Positions 57,687 through 61,022 of a DNA stretch of 64,000 nucleotides are shown piece by piece. Within the stretch, counting starts at the first letter, position 1. Each line of letters opens with the position of its first letter. The notes under the pieces are model-generated. The model did no database searches, was not told where the DNA came from, and saw nothing but the letters and a program-made list of their open reading frames with translations. Source of the stretch: Hyphomicrobiaceae bacterium (lineage in GTDB: Bacteria; Pseudomonadota; Alphaproteobacteria; Rhizobiales; Hyphomicrobiaceae); NCBI GenBank assembly GCA_022844225.1, contig JALHMC010000001.1, positions 186,001-250,000 on the forward strand, given 5' to 3'. The position numbers and the translations under genes were made by a program.

Positions 57687-58979
57687 ATGAGCCGCAGGGA
57701 ACCGAGCATGAATTCACCCGGTGCCGGGGGCACGCGTAAGGACGGAAAGCCAGCCCTGCCTTCTCTCGCCATTCTACCGTTCCGCACAATGCACGACGGC
57801 CTCCTGCGCGCAGACTTCGCCAATTGCGTAACCATGCGGATCACCGAGACGCTGAAGAGCGTCAAGGCGATGCGCGTGATCGCAGCCGCGTCGACCATGA
57901 ATTTGCCCCACGATATGCCGGTCGCGGAAGTCGGACGCTGTCTCGATGTCGACTATGTACTCCGTGGGCAGATCGTCCGAGCCGACCAGACGCTCTACTT
58001 CACGCAGTGGCTCTACCAAGGGTTATCCGGCGAACTCATCCTCGAGCATGAAGTGGAATGCGGGCTCGGTCAGCTGGAGGGGTTTGAGCGCGACGTCCTG
58101 GCCCGCGTCATCGCCGACGTTCGGTTGCCTCTCCTGGAAAGCGAGATCGACCGGATCATGGCTAAAAGGCCCCGGGAGGGATCTGCCTACGAGCTAGCGC
58201 TTCGGGCACAGGTCGCTATGTGCAGGCTCGATCGCCGCAGCGTAACACGCGCCAAGGCGCTACTCGAGCGCGCCATTGAGAAGGACCCCGGCTATGCAAC
58301 GGCCTATGCTTGGCTGGCGCGGTACTATTCGATCCGCATCGGCCAAGGCTGGACGACAGACCCTGCTGCCGACGCCAACGAAGCGCGGCGCCTTGCCGAG
58401 TGCGCCATCGCGCGAGATCCCGAGAACGTTGTTGCCCTGGCAACCGCAGGACATTTGGCGTCCTACCTCGACAGGAACTTCGCTGCTGGCGAGCGTCTGC
58501 TTCGACGCGCCGTCAAGATTTGCCCGAACGAGCCGCTCGGCTGGCTTCTATTGGCTGGAACACTGGCCTATACCGGGCGACCAACCGAAGGACGCAAGGC
58601 TGTCGAGTACGCGCTGACACTGTCCCCCATCGATTCGCAGGCCAACTTTTTCTATAATTTCGCTGCGGTCTGCTGCTACGCCGAAGGCGATTACGAGGCG
58701 GCGATCCGGTATGCTCAGCGGTCGTTCGAATTCAATCCGCGCTACTCCACGACCCTCAAGGCACTTGTGGTCTCGTTGGTCGCTTGTGGCCGTGTGGCGG
58801 AAGCCCGCGAGTATGCCGCCCTGCTGCGCAAGTGCGAGCCGGCCTATACGGCCGCCCGCGCCGCCAGCACGGTCCCGTTCCAGGACAGGGTCCTCAGAGA
58901 GCAGTTCCTCCGTCAGTTGCGTACTGGGGGGTGTTTCGACTCCCCCCGCTCGACGCGCAGCCCAAGGCGAACCCGCTAG
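57687..58979 (+). CDS. TPR protein with TolB-N-like domain of the type seen in adenylate-cyclase-associated proteins (no cyclase or HTH domain visible)
   Basis: LPSLAILPFRTMHDG...LDVDYVLRGQIVRADQTLYFTQWLYQGLSGELILEHE, then repeated TPR helices (EKDPGYATAYAWLARYY, ARDPENVVALATAGHLA, FNPRYSTTLKALVVSLVACGRVAEARE). Confidence 0.72.
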   Translation: MSRREPSMNSPGAGGTRKDGKPALPSLAILPFRTMHDGLLRADFANCVTMRITETLKSVKAMRVIAAASTMNLPHDMPVAEVGRCLDVDYVLRGQIVRADQTLYFTQWLYQGLSGELILEHEVECGLGQLEGFERDVLARVIADVRLPLLESEIDRIMAKRPREGSAYELALRAQVAMCRLDRRSVTRAKALLERAIEKDPGYATAYAWLARYYSIRIGQGWTTDPAADANEARRLAECAIARDPENVVALATAGHLASYLDRNFAAGERLLRRAVKICPNEPLGWLLLAGTLAYTGRPTEGRKAVEYALTLSPIDSQANFFYNFAAVCCYAEGDYEAAIRYAQRSFEFNPRYSTTLKALVVSLVACGRVAEAREYAALLRKCEPAYTAARAASTVPFQDRVLREQFLRQLRTGGCFDSPRSTRSPRRTR

Positions 58980-59785
58980 GCACCTCCCTCCGCTGCCTCG
59001 GAGCGGTGCACAGCCCCCGCTTTGCGCACTCTGGCCGCATAGGCGCCGCGCCGACGTTGCGGCGCCGCGTTCGGCTTCACGACCGTATCCCGGTAGCGGT
59101 CCCAATCGTCCTCTGTCAAAGCACCGATGTCGGCATCGACCCGAATGTCATTCAGCCTAGCGTCGTCATAATCGATCCGACGCACCGGTTGCACCTGCAT
59201 GAACGGCACGTCCTCATCGAAGTCGATCGGGGCACCCGTCCGCGTCAGCCGGATATTGGTGAAGAGCCCGGCGAACCAGCCGTCGGTCTCGATGATGCCC
59301 TCGTAGAGTTCGTACCCCGATGGCCGCGGGAGATTGGCAACGGGCCTGACCAGCAGGCTCCATCCCGGCGCGGTCTGGGCAATCGATCCAGGCCAGACCT
59401 GCACCGTACCCACCTGCACAGAAGCCGCCAGAAAGGGCTGTGCATAGCCACGCGCATCCTCCGGTGCCACCCGATCAAACACCTCTGGAAAGCCCGGATA
59501 GTGGATCGATCGGAGCGGCAGGAAGTCATCCATCCCGGGGAGGCGCCAGGAGACCTCGCACCCGTCCCAGAGTAGCTGAAAGCGGCGGGGCAGAAACACA
59601 TGCCAGCCAAAGGCCGATGCGGCGGATACGGGCTCGCAATAGCGTAGCGCGCGGACTGGCAGCGTGCCCCCGACAGACCGGTCGGCGCGGCGAGGAGGAC
59701 GACCACCGTCCACGACCTGAATAAACCGGGCCAAAGGTACTTTATTGACCGTTGGCGCACCGGCCTCGATCGAAATCGAACCCAT
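58976..59785 (-). CDS. Uncharacterised protein (possibly a DUF6065-type family, from memory, unverified)
   Basis: Start placed at ATG 59785 (MGSISIEAGAPTVNKVPLARFIQVVDGG) with aagaggg upstream; GWHVFLPRRFQLLWDGCEVSWRLPGMDDFLPL. Confidence 0.65.
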   Translation of the reverse strand: MGSISIEAGAPTVNKVPLARFIQVVDGGRPPRRADRSVGGTLPVRALRYCEPVSAASAFGWHVFLPRRFQLLWDGCEVSWRLPGMDDFLPLRSIHYPGFPEVFDRVAPEDARGYAQPFLAASVQVGTVQVWPGSIAQTAPGWSLLVRPVANLPRPSGYELYEGIIETDGWFAGLFTNIRLTRTGAPIDFDEDVPFMQVQPVRRIDYDDARLNDIRVDADIGALTEDDWDRYRDTVVKPNAAPQRRRGAYAARVRKAGAVHRSEAAEGGA

Positions 59786-59927
59786 ATTATCATCCCTCTT
59801 ACGACAATCGAGGATAGTCGGAGAAAATCCGACTATAATAACCGCATAGATATTATAATGTCCCGCCATAAAACACGCAATGGCGCGACTGACACCCGAC
59901 ATTTGATATCGAAGACAGCACGGGACC

Positions 59928-59951
59928 ACCCGGGTGAAAAAACCCCCGGGT
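59928..59951 (-). promoter_or_regulatory. Hairpin between candidate precursor peptide gene and downstream gene (attenuator-like)
   Basis: acccggg-tgaaaaaacc-cccgggt inverted repeat in the spacer. Confidence 0.45.
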
Positions 59952-59972
59952 AGAACCGCGCCTCCGCCCCTA

Positions 59973-60137
59973 TTACCAGGGCATCAGGCTGTCCCCAAGG
60001 CGCACCTTCGGCGCCTCGGTCCATGGCGACAGGCTGTCGCCGAGCCGCACGCGCGTGAACTGCTCGGAGGAGGAGGTGGTGGCCGTCTCGTCGGCTTTGA
60101 CGGCAGGTTGCGATATCGACTTGATCGACTTCGTCAT
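59973..60137 (-). CDS. Candidate modified-peptide (RiPP-like) precursor, 54 aa with tandem C-terminal VRLGDSLxPW repeats
   Basis: Internal ATG of ORF 59973..60302 preceded by taggag: MTKSIKSISQPAVKADETATTSSSEQFTRVRLGDSLSPWTEAPKVRLGDSLMPW. Confidence 0.7.
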   Translation of the reverse strand: MTKSIKSISQPAVKADETATTSSSEQFTRVRLGDSLSPWTEAPKVRLGDSLMPW

Positions 60138-60185
60138 TGATTCACTCCTAATGATTGGGTCTTTGAAAATTTGCTGCAGCAACGC

Positions 60186-60201
60186 TGTGATATTCACCAC
60201 A
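60186..60201. promoter_or_regulatory. CRP/FNR-type operator-like palindrome upstream of candidate precursor peptide
   Basis: TGTGA-TATTCA-CCACA, one mismatch to TGTGA-N6-TCACA, about 50 bp upstream of the 60137 start. Confidence 0.4.
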
Positions 60202-60326
60202 GCCACAGAGCCCGTCAAGACCAATAATGCGGCACTCTGAACTACGCTAAGCGCGAAGGCGGCTCCAATTCGAGCGATCCGAACCGGCATTCCCGTCCGC
60301 AATCGATCCGCGAGCGCAACCGTGAA

Positions 60327-61022
60327 TCAAAACTCGTAGCCGAAATGCGCGATTTCCGGTGCATACCAGTCGGAAACAAGCGCTCGGGAGGCATCGGTAT
60401 ACATGTCGCGATAGCTGCCTTGCCTTGAACGAGACACGTTCTCGCGTGGCAATGTCACCCGACCCGACAGTCCGAGCGTGGAAAGCACTTTGGCGAAATC
60501 AACGTCGAGGCTCTCATAGCGGCCGATGTAGTCGAGTGTGACGTGATCCTCCTCGGTGTAGAGGCTCCAATTCTCGACGAAGGCGCGGCGACGATCACGA
60601 TTGAAGTCATCGAACGTGGGCCGCGCATCAGCGGGCCTCGATTTCGTTTTGTAATGATACCACGAGACTTGCCGATCCCATGGGTTCCGCTCGAAGCTGA
60701 ACTTGAAATACTCTCGCCAGACCTCCTCACCCGCATAGGTCCGGATCCGCCACGCAGGCATATGCTCGTAGTATCCGACTGACGGATGATAGTGCCGCTC
60801 GGGCCGGCCGAGCAGTGTCTTCCACAACGGCCGCCCCGGCTTCGCGGGATGATCGATCCGGAAATTCTGCGCCGGCTTCTGGCGAACGCCGCGCAATTGC
60901 TCGCTCGCTTCGGTGATGACGTCGTCCGGCCCGCAGATCGCGGAGAGCGCTGCCTCGATCGATGTCGAGCCCGTCTTATAGGTCTTTACGTAGATGAACT
61001 TGTGAGCGTGACTCAGGATCAT
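60327..61022 (-). CDS. Sulfotransferase-like protein
   Basis: MILSHAHKFIYVKTYKTGSTSIEAALSAICG 5'-PSB-like loop, FKFSFERNPWDRQVSWYHYKTKSRP 3'-PB-like segment; start placed at 61022. Confidence 0.78.
   Translation of the reverse strand: MILSHAHKFIYVKTYKTGSTSIEAALSAICGPDDVITEASEQLRGVRQKPAQNFRIDHPAKPGRPLWKTLLGRPERHYHPSVGYYEHMPAWRIRTYAGEEVWREYFKFSFERNPWDRQVSWYHYKTKSRPADARPTFDDFNRDRRRAFVENWSLYTEEDHVTLDYIGRYESLDVDFAKVLSTLGLSGRVTLPRENVSRSRQGSYRDMYTDASRALVSDWYAPEIAHFGYEF

What the first reader, a model, noticed from the sequence alone, without database searches (positions are those of the whole stretch)
58976..61022. Candidate undescribed RiPP-like locus: repeat-bearing 54-aa peptide between a sulfotransferase and an uncharacterised gene
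Seen: three consecutive minus-strand genes, sulfotransferase-like (61022-60327), a 54-aa ORF (60137-59973) and an uncharacterised 269-aa protein (59785-58976). The peptide is a polar Ser/Thr/Lys-rich N-terminal half (leader-like) followed by VRLGDSLSPW-TEAPK-VRLGDSLMPW. The two copies are gtgcggctcggcgacagcctgtcgccatgg and gtgcgccttggggacagcctgatgccctgg. Four codons differ synonymously (Arg, Leu, Gly, Pro) and only one codon changes residue (Ser to Met), which argues that the repeat is translated and under protein-level constraint. A strong SD (taggag) precedes the ATG. Knowledge: tandem C-terminal core repeats behind a leader, next to candidate modifying enzymes, are a hallmark of RiPP precursors. 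Sulfated RiPP-like peptides exist (RaxX/RaxST), but this peptide has no Tyr, so any sulfation would have to be on Ser/Thr or the enzyme acts on something else. Inference: the uncharacterised protein and/or the sulfotransferase act on the repeats (Ser, Pro-Trp or Asp as candidate sites).
Basis: partly seen in the sequence, partly recalled or inferred. Interest (0 to 1): 0.85.

Follow-up and report, generated by a model that had tools for sequence, protein, structure and literature searches.

The report
Multi-repeat peptide with dedicated DUF6065 partner
A tiny bacterial gene makes a peptide carrying the same ten-residue motif twice, and relatives of it with one to twelve copies sit beside the same uncharacterised protein (DUF6065, predicted to have a dUTPase-like fold) in many soil and marine bacteria, so this looks like an undescribed two-gene peptide system, probably making a peptide-derived product, while the neighbouring sulfotransferase is most likely a bystander.

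Summary
In detail: a 54-aa minus-strand ORF (59973-60137) with two VRLGDSLxPW copies. It is a real, conserved gene. Its partner is the 269-aa gene (58976-59785), a divergent DUF6065 protein (PF19541). I examined 25 loci of this DUF6065 branch in Alpha- and Gammaproteobacteria. In 19 an automated scan found a self-repeating peptide gene 12-200 bp upstream on the same strand, against 0 of 35 ordinary DUF6065 loci. Two further loci have degenerate repeats and two have a single core-like motif. Copy number is 1-12. The consensus is [VLI]-x-[LI]-G-x-x-[SA]-P-x-F, with LGDxLxPW in the window's genus. Repeat copies differ mostly by synonymous changes. Ten loci have a BTAD/TPR-type regulator or its TPR half nearby (the window's 57687-58979 is one), and about half have an EamA or MFS permease. 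Rhizobium SRDI969 carries repeat peptide, DUF6065 and MFS as a tight operon. AlphaFold models of two DUF6065 proteins match dUTPases. The sulfotransferase is not part of the system: it occurs only in the window's genus, is inverted in one congener, and persists in another without the peptide. The best reading is a RiPP-like precursor with DUF6065 as its processing or modifying partner. Modification is not shown. A multivalent-scaffold rival remains open.

The parts
59973..60137 (-). Repeat-bearing peptide gene, 54 aa; core copies at 60050-60021 (VRLGDSLSPW) and 60005-59976 (VRLGDSLMPW); Shine-Dalgarno TAGGAG at 60150-60145
   Evidence: homologues beside DUF6065
58976..59785 (-). DUF6065-family protein (divergent branch), 269 aa, predicted dUTPase-like fold; invariant partner of the repeat peptide
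   Evidence: PF19541 57.1 bits; 900 homologues; AlphaFold pLDDT 83.9; Foldseek to dUTPases, prob 1.00, and again for an independent homologue
59914..59962 (-). Strong RNA hairpin just after the peptide stop codon (possible attenuator or processing hairpin between peptide and DUF6065)
   Evidence: intergenic z-score -3.8; strong hairpins also in G298, G257, G489, L177, L178 and L182
59814..59836 (-). Second perfect hairpin ATAGTCGGA-TTTTC-TCCGACTAT upstream of DUF6065
   Evidence: sequence; also folded in G298
57687..58979 (+). TPR protein, homologous to the C-terminal part of BTAD/SARP-type regulators that flank the cassette elsewhere; probable regulator-derived neighbour
   Evidence: tblastn of the BTAD-TPR regulator of G489 hits it at 27% over 435 aa, E 2e-44; BTAD domain
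60327..61022 (-). Sulfotransferase (PF03567): adjacent, judged NOT part of the system

Best explanation
The 54-aa ORF is a ribosomally made, multi-copy precursor-like peptide whose dedicated partner is the adjacent DUF6065 protein. SHOWN: the repeat peptide and this branch of DUF6065 form a conserved two-gene cassette in many lineages, and the repeats are under protein-level constraint. SHOWN by prediction only: the DUF6065 protein has a dUTPase-like (beta-clip) core with a conserved R/N, E/D and Q set in the region corresponding to the dUTPase active-site motifs. INFERRED: the protein recognises the V-x-L-G-x-x-S/A-P-x-F/W motif and modifies or helps process each copy; the short product is exported by an EamA or MFS permease where one is present; and a BTAD/TPR regulator controls expression. 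The strong hairpin between the two genes would keep the precursor in excess over its partner. The sulfotransferase plays no conserved part. In short, it works like a multi-core RiPP system with an unprecedented partner protein.
For: Repeat peptide 12-200 bp upstream and co-directional in 19/25 loci of this branch by an automated test, 0/35 in ordinary DUF6065 loci (Fisher p 9e-11). Two more loci have degenerate repeats (G183a, G262) and two a single core-like motif (L181, G808). Copies vary from 1 to 12, yet pN/pS between copies is 0.00-0.36 in all 17 peptides measured. Position preferences over 47 cores: P 47/47, F 47/47, G 44/47, S/A 47/47. Strong post-precursor hairpins in several lineages. 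EamA or MFS permease next to the cassette in several lineages; BTAD/TPR regulator in about ten loci. Rhizobium SRDI969: hypothetical protein with three VHIANKSPxF copies, DUF6065, then MFS overlapping by 4 bp. A PRMT-like protein is encoded directly downstream of DUF6065 in gammaproteobacterial locus L183. 213 precursor homologues, none of those listed with a Pfam domain.
Against: No modification, cleavage or export has been observed. No known RiPP enzyme, RRE/PqqD domain or peptidase is in the cassette. The G489 peptide has almost no leader. In Sneathiella-type loci the peptide and DUF6065 stand alone among apparently unrelated genes. EamA and MFS are usually small-molecule exporters, not peptide exporters. 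Profile-profile comparison with dUTPases is not significant, so the fold rests on AlphaFold plus Foldseek. The window itself has no exporter beside the cassette.
Confidence: 0.55

Rival explanations
1. Multivalent scaffold. The repeats are not modified; each is a short linear motif that binds DUF6065, which like dUTPases may be trimeric, so the multi-repeat chain cross-links DUF6065 into an assembly, as repeat linkers of carboxysomes and pyrenoids do.
For: Some members lack a leader and consist only of motif plus spacer (G489). Spacers are polar and K/E/D/T-rich with regular lengths. The minimal unit is just the two genes (Sneathiella loci). The dUTPase fold is often trimeric (knowledge) and is used by phages for protein-protein signalling (PDB entries listed).
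Against: Single-motif members may exist (G808, L181). Exporters and secondary-metabolism-type regulators recur beside the cassette. Precursor-type hairpins follow the peptide gene.
Confidence: 0.2
2. RiPP with the sulfotransferase as tailoring enzyme: Ser, Thr or another residue of the repeats is sulfated by the 60327-61022 protein.
For: Adjacent and co-directional in the window and in G298.
Against: Absent beside all cassettes outside the genus; inverted in G257; present with the 348-aa gene but without peptide or DUF6065 in G299. No Tyr in the peptide.
Confidence: 0.06
3. Nucleotide chemistry: DUF6065 keeps a dUTPase-like reaction in modified form and transfers a nucleotide monophosphate onto each repeat, giving a nucleotide-peptide product exported by EamA or MFS pumps.
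For: dUTPase-like fold; weak alignments place GIIETDxW in register with dUTPase motif III (GTIDADY) and RPVAN with motif II (RSG); these residues are highly conserved.
Against: The glycine-rich dUTPase motif V is not recognisable; the catalytic Asp position is Glu; the sequence match is not statistically significant. No nucleotide binding has been shown.
Confidence: 0.08
4. The pair is a regulatory or stress module (for example an antidote-like or sensing pair) in which the peptide only titrates DUF6065.
For: Small two-gene unit with variable companions.
Against: Repeat multiplicity, core diversification between lineages and exporter linkage are not expected for simple titration.
Confidence: 0.08

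Closest known systems
Multi-core RiPP precursors (cyanobactin, graspetide/microviridin and fungal dikaritin types)
   Same: A short precursor with 1-12 near-identical cores separated by conserved spacers, next to a dedicated partner gene; core number varies between relatives.
   Different: No known RiPP enzyme, RRE or peptidase; the partner is DUF6065, predicted to have a dUTPase-like fold; some members lack a leader; chemistry unknown.
DUF6065 (PF19541)
   Same: The partner protein scores above the family cut-off (57.1 against 26.6 bits).
   Different: It is in a divergent branch; ordinary DUF6065 members examined here lack an upstream repeat peptide (0/35).
dUTPase / dCTP deaminase fold
   Same: AlphaFold models of two family members match dUTPases by Foldseek (prob 1.00 for the best hits).
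   Different: Not detected by Pfam dUTPase; profile comparison not significant; motif V absent; C-terminal helices added.
RaxX / RaxST
   Same: A small peptide gene beside a sulfotransferase gene.
   Different: No Tyr in the peptide, and the sulfotransferase is not conserved with the peptide.
Multivalent linker proteins (EPYC1, CsoS2)
   Same: Repeated short motif with polar spacers and a single conserved, potentially oligomeric partner.
   Different: No compartment genes nearby; exporters and regulators instead.

Membership tests
RiPP system (general) | Short genetically encoded precursor with a core under protein-level constraint | tested here: met
   pN/pS 0.00-0.36 between repeat copies in 17 peptides; conserved across lineages
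RiPP system (general) | N-terminal leader separate from the core | tested here: inconclusive
   Window and genus members have a 25-29 aa polar N-terminal part; G489 starts with the repeat at residue 4
RiPP system (general) | Co-conserved partner gene next to the precursor | tested here: met
   19/25 loci against 0/35 control loci
RiPP system (general) | Known RiPP-modifying enzyme or RRE domain | tested here: not met
   Pfam and NCBIfam scans of the window genes and of relatives find none; only a PRMT-like protein in L183
RiPP system (general) | Post-translational modification of the peptide | not testable with these tools
   Needs mass spectrometry
DUF6065 (PF19541) | Score above Pfam gathering cut-off | tested here: met
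   57.1 bits against 26.6
dUTPase (PF00692) | Sequence match to the dUTPase family | tested here: not met
   Not listed by Pfam scan; hhalign against 18 relatives' dUTPases E about 0.15
dUTPase (PF00692) | dUTPase fold | tested here: met
   Two AlphaFold models; Foldseek best hits are dUTPases, E 3.5e-4 and 6.5e-4, prob 1.00; prediction only
dUTPase (PF00692) | Catalytic motifs I-V with dUTP hydrolysis | tested here: inconclusive
   Motif II/III-like residues are conserved (R147, N151, E166, W170); motif V not seen; activity not testable
RaxX/RaxST sulfated peptide | Tyrosine in the peptide core and a conserved sulfotransferase neighbour | tested here: not met
   No Tyr; sulfotransferase not co-conserved

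The most novel reading that the evidence does not exclude
A new class of multi-core peptide natural products, spread over Alpha- and Gammaproteobacteria, whose only universal processing or modifying protein is a dUTPase-fold DUF6065 protein, a fold not previously linked (to my knowledge) to peptide modification.
Probability: 0.4. Interest if true: 0.88.

Novelty: new variant of a known kind. Interest (0 to 1): 0.72.

Why it matters
If true, it gives DUF6065 its first functional context, adds a widespread peptide system that usual RiPP-mining rules (known enzymes, RREs) would miss, and links a dUTPase-like fold to peptide processing. It is directly testable: a complete three-gene operon (repeat peptide, DUF6065, MFS) sits on a plasmid of Rhizobium SRDI969, a strain covered in a paper on commercial legume inoculant genomes (PMC11837538). 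It also shows that the eye-catching sulfotransferase is probably incidental, which redirects any experiment.

Tried and rejected
Sulfotransferase as partner: rejected on synteny. Chance or non-coding repeat: rejected by homologues and synonymous patterns. Known precursor family: no Pfam or NCBIfam match for the window peptide; matches for the highly repetitive relatives are low-complexity artefacts. PDB relatives by sequence: none credible. dUTPase by profile-profile: in register but not significant; my first attempt used a single dUTPase sequence and was discarded. Genome-contig scan with the single protein found nothing confirmed; repeating it with alignment A1 worked. Papers naming DUF6065: none in the open-access library; RiPP/dUTPase/EamA searches gave nothing on this system. 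Plasmid tblastn with the Sneathiella-type repeat peptide: no match. An intrinsic terminator between peptide and DUF6065: the simple scan did not exceed shuffles, so the hairpins are described as hairpins only.
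Full report
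WHAT IS THERE. The window lies in a 4.37-Mb draft genome. Close DUF6065 homologues in the protein database are named Hyphomicrobiaceae. The 269-aa protein is DUF6065, PF19541.

THE PEPTIDE IS REAL AND CONSERVED. In the same genus, G298 encodes MNKSINSTTTAVVKADPKTTTSSEETPRVQLGDGLSPWFEAPKVRLGDGLMPW and G257 encodes a three-copy version (VRVGDGLSPW, VRLGDGLSPW, MRLGDGLMPW), both directly upstream of DUF6065. A database protein 72% identical to the peptide and a DUF6065 88% identical to the window's are both listed with a longest contig of 8314 bases, which suggests but does not prove one contig.

THE CASSETTE IS WIDESPREAD. Searches for DUF6065 in hundreds of relatives, then with the branch alignment A1 in 85,488 named genomes, gave a set of loci. 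G183a and G262 have degenerate repeats. L181 (IRIGAAVGRP) and G808/G831 (AKLNGGLAPK) may carry one core. G853 and G855 show none; G855 has sequencing gaps. An automated scan (self-similarity score of at least 6 and at least two motif matches, within 500 nt) is positive in 19 of 25 loci of this branch and 0 of 35 ordinary DUF6065 loci (Fisher p 9e-11). Caveats: loci are not phylogenetically independent, and the motif half of the test was learned from these peptides.

SELECTION ON THE REPEATS. In 17 peptides, pN/pS between repeat copies is 0.00-0.36. Copies were chosen by a 4-5 residue pattern, which biases pN down somewhat, but whole units of 10-26 codons were scored. Over 47 ten-residue cores, Pro8 and Phe10 are invariant, residue 7 is always Ser or Ala, and residue 4 is Gly in 44; P8, F10 and S/A7 were also part of the pattern used to collect these 47, so the free positions (V1, L/I3, and D/N/M5) are the independent part of that observation. 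In the window's genus the core has one extra residue before Pro and ends in Trp.

WHAT THE PARTNER LOOKS LIKE. AlphaFold2 gives good models for the window protein (pLDDT 83.9) and for the gammaproteobacterial L183 homologue, about 43% identical (pLDDT 83.0). In both, the best PDB matches by Foldseek are dUTPases or dCTP deaminase (E 3.5e-4 and 6.5e-4), and the viral library gives dUTPase-like proteins too. The match covers the beta core; TM-scores normalised to the query are only 0.25-0.4, because the dUTPases are half the length. hhalign against local dUTPases is not significant (E 0.15), but it puts PGWSLLVRPVANL...GIIETD opposite dUTPase motifs II/III (PGYEAQVRPRSGL...GTIDADY). R147, N151, E162, E166, D168, N177 and Q197 are invariant or nearly so across 73 branch members. 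This suggests a retained pocket, not a proven activity.

COMPANIONS. BTAD/TPR-type regulators, or their TPR half, flank the cassette in G489, G032, G183a, L178, L179, L181, L183 and in the window's genus; the window's 57687-58979 TPR protein matches the G489 regulator at E 2e-44. EamA or MFS permeases flank it in Xanthobacteraceae, Rhodoplanes, Arenicellales/gammaproteobacteria, Microvirga, Rhizobium, G032, G855, G183, G100 and others. I did not compute the background rate of such neighbours. Strong hairpins follow the peptide stop in the window (z -3.8; -4.5) and in G298, G257, G489, L177, L178 and L182; stem sequences differ between the three congeners while the hairpin is kept.

THE SULFOTRANSFERASE. 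Homologues are in all four congeners examined. In G257 it is divergent from the peptide. In G299 it is next to the same 348-aa neighbour but the genome has no detectable peptide or DUF6065; G299 is a 91%-complete draft. No cassette outside the genus has it. It belongs with the 348-aa gene, not with the peptide.

INTERPRETATION. The data establish a peptide + DUF6065 cassette. A RiPP-like reading is favoured by core multiplicity, core diversification between lineages, the post-precursor hairpin, exporters, secondary-metabolism-type regulators and the occasional PRMT-like neighbour. It is weakened by the missing leader in G489, the lack of any recognised modifying enzyme, and the stand-alone cassettes in Sneathiella-type loci. 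A multivalent-binding reading is the main rival. No paper naming DUF6065 was found in the open-access library searched; subscription papers and preprints were not searchable, so novelty is provisional.

Noticed in passing
L068:8239-9649 and 10506-12402: An ordinary DUF6065 gene sits beside what looks by eye like a lasso-peptide-type set (PqqD-like, Lasso_B2-like, kinase-like genes, ABC transporter) with a KKPYVPP-type small ORF just upstream; L075 also has a KPYVPP peptide 51 bp upstream of DUF6065.
   Followed up: no
L183:6779-7804: A protein arginine methyltransferase-like gene (PRMT_C, E 2e-12) directly downstream of DUF6065 in a gammaproteobacterial cassette whose core contains Arg (VVIGSRSPAF).
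   Followed up: partly
window 61200-62246: A 348-aa protein with no Pfam match is paired with the sulfotransferase in all four congeners examined, including the one without the peptide cassette.
   Followed up: partly
L074:8393-10327 (G198) and G150:C62:39545-41053: Two tandem ordinary DUF6065 genes.
   Followed up: no
L199:1860-2174 and 4977-5684 (Sinorhizobium medicae pMl1): A distant DUF6065 on a conjugative plasmid, near a small ORF that may be a natural-product leader-like peptide (MSTETVGIVLLRMLTDQAFAKAVIADPDAALAGYRGGLTDEE).
   Followed up: no
L144:9172-10218: In the most distant branch (G853) DUF6065 is followed by a 348-aa protein without Pfam match and an MFS-like permease, with no repeat peptide found.
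   Followed up: no
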